Positions 47,692 to 52,867 of a DNA stretch of 64,000 nucleotides are shown here, piece by piece. Positions within the stretch are counted from its first letter, which is position 1; every line of letters starts with the position of its first letter. The position numbers and the translations under genes are program-made. The notes beneath the pieces are model-generated. The model was not told the origin of the DNA. It did not search any database and saw nothing but the letters and a program-made list of their open reading frames with translations. This stretch comes from Blakeslea trispora (lineage: Eukaryota; Mucoromycota; Mucoromycetes; Mucorales; Choanephoraceae): assembly GCA_025331445.1 (NCBI GenBank), contig JAIWNE010000021.1, positions 124,001 through 188,000 on the forward strand. Direction: 5' to 3'.

Positions 47692-48110
47692 TTTTATTTT
47701 AAATTAACGGCTCATATTCTACTGACTGGTGTCACCAATACTAGTACTGACAAGCGTAAACAGCCAATCGAGGTTGAATACAACCTTCCGCATTTGTATA
47801 ATCCAAATAAGAGAAATATTGAACAAAAGAAGAAAGAAGATCAAACTAAACTCGTTACGTATAAGGAAGTTGCCTTTAGCGAAAGTCAGCTCGTTATTAC
47901 ATTCGTCAAGACATAAGGATCAATCAAGTTGAAGCGTGTAATTGATTGTTGCTTTATTTGAAATAGTATAGATATTTAGTATAGAATAGAAAAGTATAAA
48001 AGACCGTATTTTGGATAATTGTAAGCTCTTTATCAAAGACTTATTATCAAAATACAGCTGACTACGTCAAGCTTTTCCAGTGATCTTATTGGCTCAAAAG
48101 CTCTACTTTA

Positions 48111-48120
48111 GTCACGTGAC
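48111..48120. promoter_or_regulatory. Palindromic E-box GTCACGTGAC
   Basis: Perfect 10-bp palindrome with a CACGTG core, 58 bp before the tRNA-Lys stub at 48178. It may be a remnant of the original tRNA-gene promoter region. Confidence 0.35.
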
Positions 48121-48177
48121 CGCGTTTATAAAACATAACAAAATATTAAGACAACACTGGTTGGACAAATATATCCG

Positions 48178-48191
48178 CCTAGCTAGCTCAG
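48178..48191 (+). repeat. 14-nt tRNA-Lys stub, left target-site duplication
   Basis: GCCTAGCTAGCTCA is identical to nucleotides 1-14 of the tRNA-Lys gene at 52791. Bases on either side differ from that locus, so the match is exactly 14 bp. It abuts the 3' end of the minus-strand retrotransposon and is read as the left target-site duplication. Confidence 0.85.
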
Positions 48192-48471
48192 GTAAAAGAT
48201 TTCTTTTTTATTTACAAAACAATTATATGGGCTACTCAATGGAGCATAATGCCAAATTGCATGAACTAATCTAAAAAATAGAGGCGAAACAGAAAGAAAA
48301 ACCCCACAGAAAACGAACAAAAAGGGAAAAAAGACAAGAGGAAAGAGATGTAGAAAAGAAAAAATTACTCGAATAAAGCTTGCAATCAAAGGCATGACCA
48401 ACGGCTGGGAACTTTGATAATTACTTACCACCGTGGCAGCGCAGTGAAAAGACAGAGCAGTATTCTTTCAT

Positions 48472-51400
48472 TTATGGAGAGGGAGAGCAGAACCAACGAT
48501 CACCAGGATCGGGGATGAAGGGGATTGTGGCCAACGGGTGGCGCAAGCAATCTATGCTATGGAGCAGTTGGAGAAGAGCATACCAATAAGGTGGAGGATT
48601 AGAGGCAGCGTTTGTAGGGAGACAGTTGAGAGCGAAATCAATGATGTGCACACCAGGAGGAGGACGGGGCAAAGCATCAAGGAGGGAGGGATCGAGTGCA
48701 CGACATGTCAGAAGGTGATCACGAGAGAGGTACTGGCCAGAGGCACAAGGACACTCTTCTCGGAGGTTGATGAATCGACCTAAACGCCAACGAACCAAAA
48801 GGCTACGTTGAACGCGAGACATGGGCAGGTAGAGGATGGGGTCAGGCTTGAAGGTACAAGGTCGGCAGGCACGGAGAAGGACATGTCGGTTAAGACGGGC
48901 ACTGCGTTCCATTTTCTTGTTGAAGATTTCCTGCCAGTAGTCCTGGAAATGAACACGAAGTTCAACGTCAGAGACGGGTGGGGGCGAAGGAAGAGAGAGA
49001 AAAAGAGGGTTGTGTTGTAGGCCTTTGACCAAACGAGGATAGCGGAGCGAATCGCGCAAAAGGAGAAGGAGACAATCATCAGGAAGATACTGAGATCGGA
49101 GAGCGTATTTTGTAACAAGAACATTGTGGCGATGATTCATGCTGGGGATACATGTGAGGTGCATAGCAACCTGGAACCATGATCCACCAACGAACATGCT
49201 CACAAGTCTGCTTTGAAGTTTGTCAAGCTGATCCATTTCTTGGGCAGAAAAACGAGATATGGCTAGGCCATACTCAATTTTTGGACGCACAAAACAGGTG
49301 TAGAGGCGAGAGCAGAGAAGGAGAGAAAAGCCATTGCGATGGACGCCGACAGAGGTAAGGAGAGCCATGGTCTTAATAGCGGAGGCAGATCGATGAGACA
49401 AAATGCTCGCACTATGTATACCAGAGGACCGGAAAGGAACACCAAGGTAGATGAACTCATCCACAAGTGGAAGAGGTTGGTTGTAGAGGGTCAGACGTGG
49501 GCCATCGTCCGTGGCGTTGATAACAGCACACTTGGAAGGACTCCACCGATACCCGAGAGAGAAGGAGTGATCACCAGCAAGATCCAGCATACGCTGTACT
49601 TGCGATCGCGAACCGAAGATAGCTACATCATCTGCAAAAAGCAGACAATTAATAGCCAGAGGCTCATTTGTGCCAGGAAGACATACCGAAGTAGTATCGA
49701 CCGAAGCGACAGAGCGAAGGAGAGAAGGCAGCGAGTTGATGTACACAGAGTACAGAAGAGGTGAGAGCACGGATCCTTGAAGGACACCAGTAGCAGGCGC
49801 AAAGGGAGCAGAGGTATGGTTAGCAATCAGCACCGAGACCTGTACTTCATCAAATAAATTGATGAGAGTAGCAAGAATCGGGCGAGGCAACGTAGAGGTA
49901 GAAAGAGCATCCCAGATAACACGTCTGTCGACGGTATCGTATGCAGCCTTGATGTCAAGAAACGCAACAACAGGACGGTGCTTGTGAGAGAGAAAGTAGT
50001 CATGCATCAAGTCATGCAAGCAGAGGGCTTGATCCAGAGGACTACGTTGAGCACGAAAGCCACCTTGGGCCACGTCAAGTTGAGGCGAGTGGTCCTCGAG
50101 ACAACCAGAAATGGAAAACTCAAAGAGTTTACGCATAACAGAAGTCAGCGAGATAGGTCGATAATTTGCTGGGTCAGCAGGATCATTCTTCTTGTGTATT
50201 GGAAATACACTAGCAGTGCGCCAGAGCAAAGGAGTATAACCCCATTGGCAATAAAGCTGAAAGAGAGAAGAGAGCACTGGAGAGACTACACTGGCAACGG
50301 CCTTCAGCATTTCTGCTTTCAGGTGATCGTTACCAGGAGCCTTCCTTGTAGGTAGACGGCGGATATGATCCATGATTGCATCAACAGCGAAATTCTCCTT
50401 ATCAGAGTCAGACAACGTAAACGGAGCTGAACTACTGAAAGAGGGAGTAGGTGGGGGACGAGAAGCGGAGGGGAGGAGAGAGCCACTATAGACAGAGGCT
50501 AGATGATCGGCCATAACAGATACGGCTGCTTGAGGACCATCAGCATGACTAAAGGACGAGGAGCAGTCACGGCGACGTTTAATACGCGCAAGAGTAGAAA
50601 TAGCTTTTTTAAAGTCTTTTTCTAAAGAATCACAAAAGTTCTTCCAAGAGAGACGTTTAGCAGCGGAGATGAGGCGGCGAAAGTGACGATGAGCATCTTT
50701 ATGTTGATTCCACCAGAAGGCTTTGTCAACACCAACAGCATGACGCCAACGACCAAAACACTGATCACGCTTTTTTGCAGCAGTTTCTATTTCTTCTGTC
50801 CAGTACTTTTTCCACCAACGACCAGGACCATTGACCTTCACACCTATCGAACCATCCAAAGCTACGTAGAAGCACTCATTAAGAGTGGCATTCAGCGCAT
50901 CAATATCAGGCCGAGTCAGTGGTGGGTCAGAAACCAGGGAATCCAGAGTCAGAGACAGACCAGAGACCAAGGAAGCAAACTTACTTCTAAAGAGAGCTAA
51001 AGGTTCCAACTCACTTAGACGTGAGAGGTTCCATAGTCTTCTAGGAGCAAGAGTGCCGTCAGAGTTACCCCCAGATCCCAAAGGTGGAACATAGTCAAAC
51101 GACAGAGTCATTAGCCTATGGTCCGAACCTAGTGACAGATCAGTTTCTACAGTTAGACTGAGATGAGTCATATTCCATGAGGAGATATTCGTCAGAAAAA
51201 GATCAATGATACTGCTATGTTCAGCTTCCTGCCGAAAAGTACTAAACGTAGCAACACCATATGCCAGAGAAGCATTCAATACTTCAAGTGAGCGTTGTTC
51301 ACAAAGAGTTTGCAAACGAACACCACGAGGAGTAGTTCTTGAATCGCCAGTGAGAGAGCCCATTCTTGCATTGAAATCACCACAAATGATAGTGTCTGAA

Positions 51401-51795
51401 TGAAGGGGGATTTGCTTGAGAGAGGATATCACCAGATCGTCAGAGATACTGGGTGGAAAATATACACAATGCACATTGACTGCACCTATTTTCAAGGATA
51501 AAGTATATGCATTGAGGGAGGGAAGTTGAGAGATGGTATGAGGACAGTGGGGGGAAATGAGAGCAGTAATTCCACCTTGGCCACGGTTGTTAGCACCAAC
51601 TACCTTTGATCCATACAAATGGTACTGAGACCAATTGACAGGAAGATAGCCGGCTGTGAGCCAGGTTTCAGTTACAAAGAGAATATCAGAATGAGCGGAA
51701 TGGGAGAGTACATCATGGACAGTAGATTGACTAAGGCCATTTGCATTAAAGAGACTTAAATAAAAGGAATGTGAGGGGGATGATGATGGACTCAT
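48472..51795 (-). CDS. LINE ORF2: endonuclease and reverse transcriptase
   Basis: A 1107-aa polyprotein without internal stops. Residues 1-230 form an apurinic-type (EEP) endonuclease: FNANGL near 17, VTETW with catalytic Glu near 43, IICGDFNARMG, SIIDLFLTN and GSDHRLM. The reverse transcriptase (about 480-780) shows NYRPISLTSVMRKLFE, VVAFLDIKAAYDTVDRR, TGVLQGSVLSPLLYSVYIN and the active site LLFADDVAIFG. The C-terminus has a zinc-knuckle-like CPCASGQYLSRDHLLTC. I see no RNase H domain. The layout matches APE-type LINEs; the clade is not decided. The ATG overlaps the ORF1 stop as TAATG. Confidence 0.95.
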   Translation of the reverse strand: MSPSSSPSHSFYLSLFNANGLSQSTVHDVLSHSAHSDILFVTETWLTAGYLPVNWSQYHLYGSKVVGANNRGQGGITALISPHCPHTISQLPSLNAYTLSLKIGAVNVHCVYFPPSISDDLVISSLKQIPLHSDTIICGDFNARMGSLTGDSRTTPRGVRLQTLCEQRSLEVLNASLAYGVATFSTFRQEAEHSSIIDLFLTNISSWNMTHLSLTVETDLSLGSDHRLMTLSFDYVPPLGSGGNSDGTLAPRRLWNLSRLSELEPLALFRSKFASLVSGLSLTLDSLVSDPPLTRPDIDALNATLNECFYVALDGSIGVKVNGPGRWWKKYWTEEIETAAKKRDQCFGRWRHAVGVDKAFWWNQHKDAHRHFRRLISAAKRLSWKNFCDSLEKDFKKAISTLARIKRRRDCSSSFSHADGPQAAVSVMADHLASVYSGSLLPSASRPPPTPSFSSSAPFTLSDSDKENFAVDAIMDHIRRLPTRKAPGNDHLKAEMLKAVASVVSPVLSSLFQLYCQWGYTPLLWRTASVFPIHKKNDPADPANYRPISLTSVMRKLFEFSISGCLEDHSPQLDVAQGGFRAQRSPLDQALCLHDLMHDYFLSHKHRPVVAFLDIKAAYDTVDRRVIWDALSTSTLPRPILATLINLFDEVQVSVLIANHTSAPFAPATGVLQGSVLSPLLYSVYINSLPSLLRSVASVDTTSVCLPGTNEPLAINCLLFADDVAIFGSRSQVQRMLDLAGDHSFSLGYRWSPSKCAVINATDDGPRLTLYNQPLPLVDEFIYLGVPFRSSGIHSASILSHRSASAIKTMALLTSVGVHRNGFSLLLCSRLYTCFVRPKIEYGLAISRFSAQEMDQLDKLQSRLVSMFVGGSWFQVAMHLTCIPSMNHRHNVLVTKYALRSQYLPDDCLLLLLRDSLRYPRLVKGLQHNPLFLSLPSPPPVSDVELRVHFQDYWQEIFNKKMERSARLNRHVLLRACRPCTFKPDPILYLPMSRVQRSLLVRWRLGRFINLREECPCASGQYLSRDHLLTCRALDPSLLDALPRPPPGVHIIDFALNCLPTNAASNPPPYWYALLQLLHSIDCLRHPLATIPFIPDPGDRWFCSPSP

Positions 51796-52730
51796 TAAAG
51801 TTCCATATCAGAGCCAACGTCAGAGTCAACCTGAGGTTCAGTGCGGAAAGCAAACTGAGAGGAGGAGGAAGAGGTCTTTGGAAGCCTAGCTTCAGCAGCA
51901 GCGACGCACATCTTGACATCATCGTCATCAATCCAGCCCCACTCCAAGAAAGAGCGAGCAACAGGAGAAACAACGAGAGGACGGAGGAAAGAGAGAGTAG
52001 AGATGGCACGATCACGTACCAACTCGAGCATTTGTTGTTCTCTTTCATCGTCAGAGAGAGAGGAGAACTTGGGATCGGCGAGGTGGGCAGGGCTTAAAGG
52101 ATCGAAATCCGTAATGAGTTCGGCGCCGGCTTTCTGCATGACAGCAGTGAATTGCTCCACATACTGGACATGCATAAGCACACCAAGAACACCAGAGGCA
52201 GGAAAGGAAATGTCGAGAACTCGACCAGTGTCAACGCCAATACGGCGAAGACGAGAGCGAACTTCAGATCGATTGATCTTTCTGGAACGCCCAAGGTAGA
52301 CGTATTTAAAGCCTTGAGGACCTTTGGCCCCAGGGCTCACAAAGAAACGAGCAATAGCTGCACGCTTCTTGGTTGAAGGTGCACGTACCTTCTTGGCAGG
52401 TGCAGGAGGAGGAGAGACAGCGGGCTTGGCAGCAGCAGCGGTCCAGGAAGAAGCAGAGATACCATTGGAGGCAACAGAGACTTGGGAGTCAGGTACGGTC
52501 ACCTGATTGTCAACTAATTTGAGAAGTCTTTCATTCTCAGTAGCTAATTTTTTATTTTTTTCCTCCAGGGAAAAAATTTTTTCTTGAAGAGATTCAATAT
52601 GTTTGAAGAGCCCATCATGTTGTTGAACTTGTTGTTGCAACTGCAACACGAGATCTTGAAGTTGTTGCAAGTCAACTTGTGAGTTGCGAACAAAGGAGGT
52701 AGGTGCATGTGATTGCAATGGTGAAGTCAT
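51795..52730 (-). CDS. LINE ORF1: nucleic-acid-binding protein
   Basis: A 311-aa protein upstream of and overlapping ORF2. Residues about 18-75 form a strong coiled coil (LQDLVLQLQQQVQQHDGLFK and SLEEKNKKLATENERLLKLV), probably for oligomerisation. A Pro/Ala-rich basic linker follows (SPPPAPAKKVRAPSTKKRAA). An RRM-like segment comes next: FKYVYLGRSRKINRSEVRSR, then VLDISFPASGVLGVLMHVQY. The C-terminal part is acidic. Coiled coil plus RRM is the L1-like ORF1 type. No CCHC knuckles are visible in it. Confidence 0.8.
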   Translation of the reverse strand: MTSPLQSHAPTSFVRNSQVDLQQLQDLVLQLQQQVQQHDGLFKHIESLQEKIFSLEEKNKKLATENERLLKLVDNQVTVPDSQVSVASNGISASSWTAAAAKPAVSPPPAPAKKVRAPSTKKRAAIARFFVSPGAKGPQGFKYVYLGRSRKINRSEVRSRLRRIGVDTGRVLDISFPASGVLGVLMHVQYVEQFTAVMQKAGAELITDFDPLSPAHLADPKFSSLSDDEREQQMLELVRDRAISTLSFLRPLVVSPVARSFLEWGWIDDDDVKMCVAAAEARLPKTSSSSSQFAFRTEPQVDSDVGSDMEL

Positions 52731-52790
52731 CTCGAAAAGTAACTTTTAAAACTGTTCTATAAGTAGGTTTTCAGCAGTAGCAAAAGAGAG

Positions 52791-52863
52791 GCCTAGCTAG
52801 CTCAATCGGTAGAGCGTGAGACTCTTAATCTCAAGGTTGTGGGTTCGACCCCCACGTTGGGCT
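52791..52863 (+). tRNA. tRNA-Lys (anticodon CUU)
   Basis: Full cloverleaf: acceptor GCCTAGC/GTTGGGC, D-arm GCTC-AATCGGTA-GAGC, anticodon stem TGAGA/TCTCA with loop CTCTTAA (anticodon CTT at 52824-52826), and T-arm GTGGG-TTCGACC-CCCAC. No intron. The A box (TAGCTCAATCGG) and B box (GGTTCGACCCC) are intact. Its first 14 nt are the right copy of the retrotransposon target-site duplication, so its original upstream DNA is now 4.6 kb away and its immediate 5' flank is the antisense LINE 5' UTR. Confidence 0.97.
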
Positions 52864-52867
52864 CTTC

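What the first reader, a model, noticed from the sequence alone, without database searches (positions are those of the whole stretch)
48178..52863. LINE retrotransposon inserted into a tRNA-Lys gene and rebuilding it through its target-site duplication
The minus-strand element 48192-52790 is flanked by GCCTAGCTAGCTCA at 48178-48191 and 52791-52804. The right copy is exactly nucleotides 1-14 of a complete tRNA-Lys(CUU) gene, and the left copy is an orphan stub of it. Bases beyond the 14-mer differ, so this is a true duplication. Its geometry implies a first nick of the tRNA sense strand after nucleotide 14 (inside the A box) and a second nick of the other strand precisely at the 5' end of the tRNA. 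Because the duplicated piece starts at tRNA nucleotide 1, the gene is restored whole. That would be a way to use an abundant conserved target without killing it, and points to a sequence-specific endonuclease. LINEs that insert near tRNA genes are known in amoebae (Dictyostelium TRE elements, at a distance). One inserting within a tRNA gene and regenerating it in a fungus would be new to me.
Basis: partly seen in the sequence, partly recalled or inferred. Interest (0 to 1): 0.93.

Follow-up and report, generated by a model that had tools for sequence, protein, structure and literature searches.

The report
Fungal LINEs that rebuild tRNA genes
A fungal genome holds several families of jumping genes that cut transfer-RNA genes at one fixed spot in the promoter and, by the short duplication they leave behind, put the gene back together, so that the target can be used again without being lost.

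Summary
The window's minus-strand LINE (family A) ends at a 14-bp copy of nucleotides 1-14 of tRNA-Lys(CUU), whose whole gene stands at the element's other side. In the window's own assembly (37.2 Mb; closest named relatives in Mucor) I found 18 family-A 3' ends; 16 stop at a tRNA A box, 13 of them exact starts of Lys, Thr, Phe, Tyr, Ile or Cys genes. Three more families (ORF2 39-53% identical) do the same: B in Met, Phe, Thr; C in Val, Gln, Asp; E in Gly. Of 24 copies with both junctions read, 21 have a duplication running from tRNA nucleotide 1 (or further upstream) to 14/15; the LINE is antisense in all 24. All 8 tRNA-Val(AAC) genes found carry a family-C LINE flush at the 5' end; six were read whole and are identical. 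Genes that differ at nucleotide 15 place the first cut after A14. Corrections: the target is the A box of many tRNAs, and window 52753-52790 is not LINE. tRNA-gene LINEs are known (NeSL/LIN; TRE nearby); none with this cut-and-rebuild geometry turned up in the papers searched.

The parts
48178..48191 (+). Left target-site duplication: orphan stub, nt 1-14 of tRNA-Lys
   Evidence: exact match to 52791-52804; the next base, G at 48192, differs from A15 of the tRNA and belongs to the LINE end
48192..52752 (-). LINE family A, 3' end at 48192; lacks about 190 bp of 5' UTR that other copies have
   Evidence: (shared region begins at query 39)
51795..52730 (-). ORF1: coiled-coil-like N-terminus by eye, no Pfam match over its cut-off
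48472..51795 (-). ORF2: AP-type endonuclease (PF14529, PF03372) and reverse transcriptase (PF00078), uninterrupted; no RNase H match in Pfam
52753..52790 (.). 38 bp between LINE and tRNA, not LINE; dispersed sequence, perhaps an LTR end left by a later insertion and deletion (inference)
52791..52804 (+). Right target-site duplication = nt 1-14 of the rebuilt tRNA gene
52791..52864 (+). Complete tRNA-Lys(CUU) gene; its 49-base core is identical to those of seven other tRNA-Lys genes of the genome
47952..48157 (.). Repeat (88-99% identical pieces) also upstream of tRNA stubs at C49 and C19; ends 10-20 bp from tRNA nt 1, LTR-like (inference)

Best explanation
These are non-LTR retrotransposons with an AP-type endonuclease that insert by target-primed reverse transcription into the A box (internal Pol III promoter) of tRNA genes. 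The first nick is on the tRNA-sense strand after A14. The freed end (for family A ...GCTCA-3') primes copying of the LINE RNA, which is why the LINE lies antisense to the tRNA. The second nick, on the other strand, falls 14 bp upstream, just before nt 1. Filling in leaves nt 1-14 on both sides: a dead stub beyond the 3' end and a complete tRNA gene next to the 5' end. tRNAs have no length variation before nt 14 (general knowledge), so one constant stagger always reaches nt 1. Shown: site, orientation, duplication, intact tRNA sequence, repetition in four families and twelve anticodons. Inferred: the order of nicks, sequence reading by the endonuclease (possibly helped by pairing of the RNA 3' end with the primer), and activity of the rebuilt genes.
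For: Both junctions read in 24 copies, 21 with matching duplications: A 10 of 12, B 1 of 1, C 7 of 8, E 3 of 3 (C27). 3' ends at a tRNA stub or A box: A 16 of 18, B 3 of 3, C 16 of 21, one with a mismatch, E 4 of 4. In tRNAs with A15 (Lys at C124 and C271, Gln at C277) the stub ends at nt 14 and the LINE supplies the G. All 8 tRNA-Val(AAC) genes found (26-nt pattern, at most 1 mismatch) have the family-C 5' end directly before nt 1; six were read whole and are identical, the other two over the 32-34 bases seen; the 3' flanks of the six differ. 13 of 48 GCTCA-class tRNA genes carry family A on their 5' side (10 within 40 bp, 3 behind a further insertion). Stacking: two family-C copies in tandem at C112, joined by a tRNA-Val stub. 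About 20-60 nt before the tRNA, family-A copies differ by 12-24%, against 0-3% elsewhere in the 5' UTR, which would fit mutation next to active tRNA genes (recalled idea).
Against: Both-junction mismatches: C279 (tRNA-Tyr on one side, a shortened Lys-like stub on the other), C140 (degraded; Phe-like against Lys-like), C27 (tRNA-Val on one side, only TGTAG on the other). Four more family-C 3' ends (C73, C213, C239, C278) and two family-A ends (C139, C277) lack a full stub. For three family-A copies (C24, C26, C62) no tRNA was found on the 5' side; C270 (family C) has a stub at its 3' end but no tRNA in the 5' stretch read; C149 has tRNA-Val but its 3' end is lost. A relative at C144 lies in a 5S gene in the same orientation as that gene, not antisense. 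No empty allele was available. In G15 tRNAs, 14 and 15 bp cannot be told apart. No expression data.
Confidence: 0.93

Rival explanations
1. Site choice is made by the Pol III machinery (TFIIIC or TFIIIB recruiting the LINE protein, as for TRE5-A), not by endonuclease or RNA-primer sequence recognition; geometry and rebuilding are the same.
For: The targets found are Pol III genes. Cut positions are fixed relative to the A box in tRNAs with different A-box sequences. TRE5-A ORF1 protein interacts with TFIIIB (PMC5911963, passages).
Against: Families take different tRNA subsets that follow the bases before the cut: GCTCA for A and B, TRTA for C, GGTTAA for E (one tRNA only). A general Pol III factor would not be expected to sort tRNAs that way. 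Three family-C 3' ends sit at bare TRTAG (C27, C213, C278), though these may be eroded stubs.
Confidence: 0.25
2. The tRNA gene is cargo: LINE RNA that reads through a neighbouring antisense tRNA carries it to new places (5' transduction), so the gene is copied rather than rebuilt.
For: All 8 tRNA-Val genes found adjoin family C. C27 has a tRNA-Val at its 5' end but no full stub at its 3' end.
Against: Copies of one family adjoin tRNAs of different kinds, and in 21 of 24 the stub at the far end matches that same tRNA. The 3' flanks of the six tRNA-Val genes read whole differ.
Confidence: 0.03
3. Ectopic recombination between tRNA genes or LINE copies, or assembly chimeras, made the tRNA-LINE junctions.
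For: C279 and C140 have unlike tRNAs at the two ends.
Against: The same junctions recur in many contigs and four families; recombination would not put the cut after A14 each time.
Confidence: 0.03

Closest known systems
NeSL/LIN-type LINEs of tRNA genes (NeSL-1_TV tRNA-Pro; LIN15_SM tRNA-Arg; LIN25_SM tRNA-Glu)
   Same: non-LTR retrotransposons specific for tRNA genes (PMC4640811, passages seen)
   Different: that paper discusses them with the restriction-like-endonuclease NeSL group, each for one tRNA; their target figure is a supplement I did not see, so the exact cut and any rebuilding are unknown to me. The present ones have AP endonucleases and together hit genes of twelve anticodons.
Dictyostelid TRE5, TRE3, NLTR-A, NLTR-B
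   Same: non-LTR retrotransposons aimed at tRNA genes in a compact genome; many tRNA genes occupied (PMC5006619, section 9 read; PMC5911963, passages)
   Different: they are reported in flanks: TRE5 about 50 bp upstream, TRE3 downstream, NLTR-A 2-6 bp upstream of nt 1. The present ones cut inside the gene and restore it. NLTR-A's position resembles what is seen here at the rebuilt side and would merit a new look.
Dada DNA transposons
   Same: insert within the A box of tRNA genes, nt 8-13, in several isoacceptors, and some in 5S genes (PMC8869645, passages)
   Different: DDE transposase; 6-7 bp duplications (PMC3706591, abstract); tRNA genes are disrupted
Site-specific AP-endonuclease LINEs of small-RNA genes (Keno in U2, Mutsu in 5S, Dewa in tRNA-Leu spacer)
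   Same: exact targets in small-RNA genes (PMC3706591, passages); Keno has an AP-type endonuclease (PMC4640811); for Mutsu and Dewa that is recalled
   Different: targets are not inside tRNA genes; clade kinship not tested
Ty3-like LTR elements at tRNA genes in Rhizopus oryzae
   Same: tRNA genes as mobile-element hot spots in Mucorales (PMC2699053, passages)
   Different: LTR elements co-localising with tRNA genes; that paper lists LINEs (3.78% of the assembly) with no target in the passages I saw

Membership tests
Non-LTR retrotransposon (LINE) with AP-type endonuclease | ORF2 with AP endonuclease and RT carrying catalytic residues | tested here: met
   PF14529, PF03372, PF00078; N18, E44, D141, N143, D199, S225/D226/H227, RT D615/D723/D724 conserved in 80-88 of 88 aligned sequences (the window's and 87 of the 120 listed homologues, chosen by length)
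Non-LTR retrotransposon (LINE) with AP-type endonuclease | target-site duplication and constant 3' end | tested here: met
Site-specific LINE | independent copies at one exact site | tested here: met
   39 of 46 3' ends found for four families at tRNA A box or stub
TRE-type (Dictyostelium) targeting | insertion in the flank at a distance from the tRNA gene | tested here: not met
   cut after nt 14 within the gene
NeSL/R2-type (restriction-like endonuclease) LINE | C-terminal restriction-like endonuclease, no AP endonuclease | tested here: not met
   N-terminal AP endonuclease found; a restriction-like domain was not sought separately
Tad1, I or R1 clade | RNase H domain (in many members, recalled) and RT phylogeny | tested here: inconclusive
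   no RNase H match in Pfam at E up to 1; no reference clades in my tree
L1/Tx1 clade | RT phylogeny within L1 group | not tested
   best PDB matches of the RT: 8gh6, named only 'Reverse transcriptase-like protein' (65 bits), human L1 (56), R2 (45); not decisive

The most novel reading that the evidence does not exclude
A whole clade of AP-endonuclease LINEs in Mucorales has tuned its two nicks to tRNA geometry (after A14, and 14 bp back at nt 1), so that each insertion rebuilds the gene it breaks; targets are inexhaustible, can be saturated (8 of 8 tRNA-Val genes found) and stacked. In addition the LINE's 5' end acts as the substitute upstream promoter region of the rebuilt tRNA gene: it replaces the native 5' flank and, in 5 of 9 family-A copies, carries TCACGTGA 52 bp upstream of nt 1, as several other tRNA flanks do at 52-55 bp.
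Probability: 0.4. Interest if true: 0.93.

Novelty: new variant of a known kind. Interest (0 to 1): 0.88.

Why it matters
It answers, for one group, how a mobile element can use essential genes as targets without harm: the geometry of its cuts repairs the target. A genome in which every detected gene for one tRNA isoacceptor carries an insertion is natural evidence that the rebuilt genes work. The enzymes read short, conserved A-box sequences with different preferences per family, which makes them natural material for studying how LINE endonucleases and RNA-primer pairing set target choice, and for safe-harbour gene insertion. It also predicts the same behaviour in related Mucor and Rhizopus elements, which can be checked at once in existing assemblies.

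Tried and rejected
Insertion specific for tRNA-Lys: rejected; genes of twelve anticodons are hit. A second set of 3'-end-like pattern hits (AAAAAAGAAATCTGTTAC) was looked at and dropped: ARAGORN found no tRNA in the loci cut out for it (L047-L060, part of the hits), and the seven shown share a flank unlike the LINE's, so it seems to be a piece of another repeat. ORF2 relatives at C2, C144, C36, C110, C29, C49 and C93 were examined at their presumed ends: C36 and C29 are family E, C49 is family B, C93 looks like family B by its 5' end but its 3' end was not found in the stretch read; C110 resembles family E but shows neither junction; C2 shows no tRNA junction that I could find; C144 has its 3' end in a 5S rRNA gene, its 5' side lying in an N gap. 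One scan of IMG/VR confirmed no relative. A tree of RT domains of 104 sequences puts family A with Mucor proteins (support 0.99), and families A and B with Mucor and Rhizopus stolonifer proteins in one clade (0.88), but the exact joining of B is weak (0.22), and families C and E could not be included, so whether A-box targeting arose once is untested. Structure prediction was not used: it would not have changed the verdict. Positional motifs upstream of tRNA stubs (TGTAGTG at -61 to -65 in 7 of 37 flanks, TCACGTGA in 9 of 37) were first thought to be a tRNA promoter element; at least some belong to repeated LTR-like sequences, so I leave that open.

Rows dropped before counts. In one search only copies for which both junctions were in hand were entered (23); C27, read later, is added as a failure, making 24. 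C149 (5' tRNA-Val, 3' end lost), C270 (3' stub, no tRNA in the 5' stretch read), C112b (3' stub; its 5' end abuts the stub of C112a), C26 and C256 (family C, 5' only), C227 and C24 (family A, 5' only), C26 and C62 (family A, 3' stub but no tRNA found beyond an insertion at the 5' end), family B at C280 and C49, and copies with only a 3' end are not in the 24. C240 (stub Ile, and a tRNA-Ile gene 3.3 kb from the LINE) agrees with the model but is not counted either. Copy counts are lower bounds by the tool's own warning.
Full report
What is in the window. The minus-strand LINE at 48192-52752 has two ORFs (ORF1 52730-51795, ORF2 51795-48472), ORF2 with AP-type endonuclease and reverse transcriptase domains and their catalytic motifs. 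Left of its 3' end stands GCCTAGCTAGCTCA (48178-48191). The same 14 bases begin a complete tRNA-Lys(CTT) gene at 52791. Beyond the 14 bases the two sides differ. The window element is a 5'-shortened copy: the region shared with most other copies begins at 52752, about 190 bp of 5' UTR is missing, and 38 bp of foreign, dispersed sequence lies between it and the tRNA gene.

The genome-wide test. The window lies in an unnamed assembly of 37.2 Mb; the closest named ORF2 relatives are in Mucor saturninus and M. velutinosus (61-64% identity), and an unnamed ENA record holds a 95% match over 71% of the protein. The element has 26 pieces of 95-100% identity there, plus a 46-bp 3' fragment (lower bounds). 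Of the 18 3' ends among these, 16 stop directly at a tRNA A box, T[AG]GCTCAG. 13 of the 16 are exact copies of nt 1-14/15 of tRNA genes seen in this genome; C62 looks like another tRNA whose gene was not seen; C140 is one base and C279 about four bases short. C277 and C139 do not fit. At the 5' ends ARAGORN finds tRNA-Thr, Phe, Tyr, Ile, Lys, Met and Cys genes, flush or within about 40 bp, on the strand opposite to the LINE. In five copies another insertion beginning with TG, LTR-like, follows the LINE's 5' end. For C261 and C280 the matching tRNA lies beyond it (1.2 and 5.2 kb away), for C240 a tRNA-Ile lies 3.3 kb away; for C26 and C62 none was found.

More families. An ORF2 search gave relatives at 39-53% identity. 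Family B (C271, C280, C49) ends at the same place in tRNA-Met, Phe and Thr (3 of 3 3' ends). Family C stops at TRTA|G in tRNA-Val, Gln and Asp: 16 of 21 3' ends carry the full stub, one of these with a mismatch. Family E sits in tRNA-Gly(GCC): 4 of 4 3' ends. A further relative, C144, has its 3' end in a 5S rRNA gene (39.7 bits against a cut-off of 38), there in the gene's own orientation, so Pol III genes other than tRNA genes may be used too, perhaps by another route.

Geometry. Of 24 copies whose two junctions I could read, 21 show the same duplication: it ends at nt 14 or 15 and begins at nt 1, or further upstream where chance or an earlier copy extends the match (C27). Three tRNAs that have A rather than G at position 15 (Lys twice, Gln once) show that the cut is after A14, because the stub carries the LINE's own G there. 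A14 is invariant in ordinary tRNAs and no tRNA has a variable-length position before it (general knowledge), so a single 14-bp stagger always lands at nt 1. A shorter stagger would destroy the gene; 14 bp is the least that saves it.

Saturation and reuse. A 26-base pattern of tRNA-Val(AAC) with up to one mismatch occurs 8 times in the genome. All eight have the family-C 5' end directly before nt 1; in two (C26, C190) that end is a few bases shorter than usual. Six of the eight genes were read whole and are identical, with different 3' flanks; the other two were seen over their first 32-34 bases. Unless these genes work, the fungus would seem to lack this tRNA. Of the five of these loci whose 3' junction could be judged, four have the tRNA-Val stub (C25, C69, C112, C190) and C27 does not. 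At C112 two family-C copies stand in tandem with a tRNA-Val stub between them: the same gene was hit, rebuilt and hit again. In the class with GCTCA...AGAGCG, 13 of 48 tRNA genes carry family A on their 5' side. The tRNA-Lys gene of the window has the same core as seven others.

How it most likely works. Nick after A14 on the sense strand; the exposed 3' end primes reverse transcription of the LINE RNA; second nick 14 bp upstream on the other strand; repair duplicates nt 1-14. Families choose tRNAs by the bases before the cut (GCTCA, TRTA, GGTTAA), which speaks for reading of DNA sequence by the endonuclease or by pairing with the RNA 3' end rather than for recruitment by Pol III factors alone. 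This last step is inference; no biochemistry is at hand.

What does not fit. C279, C140 and C27 have unlike ends; C73, C213, C239 and C278 (family C) and C139 and C277 (family A) lack a full stub; C270 lacks a tRNA in the 5' stretch read. Some of these follow an LTR-like end by only a few bases and could be eroded or recombined, or off-target insertions at TRTAG. No empty allele was available to me.

A side signal. In family A the stretch some 20-60 nt before the tRNA differs by 12-24% between copies while the rest of the 5' UTR differs by 0-3% (the last blocks run into tRNA or LTR and are not comparable). This could be mutation driven by tRNA transcription (a known idea, recalled), which would mean that the rebuilt genes are active; or it could reflect how 5' junctions form. 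The same stretch carries TCACGTGA 52 bp before nt 1 in 5 of the 9 copies looked at; other tRNA flanks have it mostly at 52-55 bp. Whether the LINE brings its own upstream promoter for the tRNA is open.

Known relatives. tRNA-gene-specific LINEs exist: NeSL-1_TV (tRNA-Pro), LIN15_SM (Arg), LIN25_SM (Glu), treated with the restriction-endonuclease NeSL group (PMC4640811, passages). TRE and NLTR elements insert beside tRNA genes (PMC5006619 section 9; PMC5911963 passages). Dada DNA transposons insert at nt 8-13 (PMC8869645 passages). I found no report of an AP-endonuclease LINE inside tRNA genes that restores them, nor of tRNA-targeted LINEs in Mucorales, in ten searches (listings seen, and passages of the papers named here and of PMC3747384) of an open-access library that misses most subscription papers. 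Supplementary files were not open to me. The LINE clade is not settled: no RNase H match, and the RT's best solved relatives include both R2 and human L1.

Noticed in passing
L072 (G000:C144:7400-8740), 1057-1171: A relative of the LINE (ORF2 about 43% identical) has its 3' end inside a 5S rRNA gene, in the gene's orientation; the other junction lies in an N gap.
   Followed up: partly
L009, L014, L019, L020, L024 and C280:49340-53330: LTR-like insertions beginning TG follow the 5' end of five family-A copies, between LINE and tRNA where the tRNA was found; tRNA genes here are nests of several element types.
   Followed up: partly
37 upstream flanks of tRNA stubs: TGTAGTG at -61 to -65 in 7 of 37 and TCACGTGA in 9 of 37 (mostly -52 to -55) flanks; partly due to shared LTR-like repeats, possibly a tRNA upstream element.
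   Followed up: partly
family A 5' UTR, about 20-60 nt before the tRNA: Hypervariable stretch, 12-24% divergence against 0-3% in the rest of the 5' UTR.
   Followed up: partly
window 47952-48157: Repeat shared with upstream flanks of a tRNA-Thr (C49) and a tRNA-Asp (C19) target; ends 10-20 bp from tRNA nt 1.
   Followed up: partly
G000:C112:70348-81280: Tandem pair of family-C LINEs at one tRNA-Val gene, separated by a tRNA stub.
   Followed up: yes
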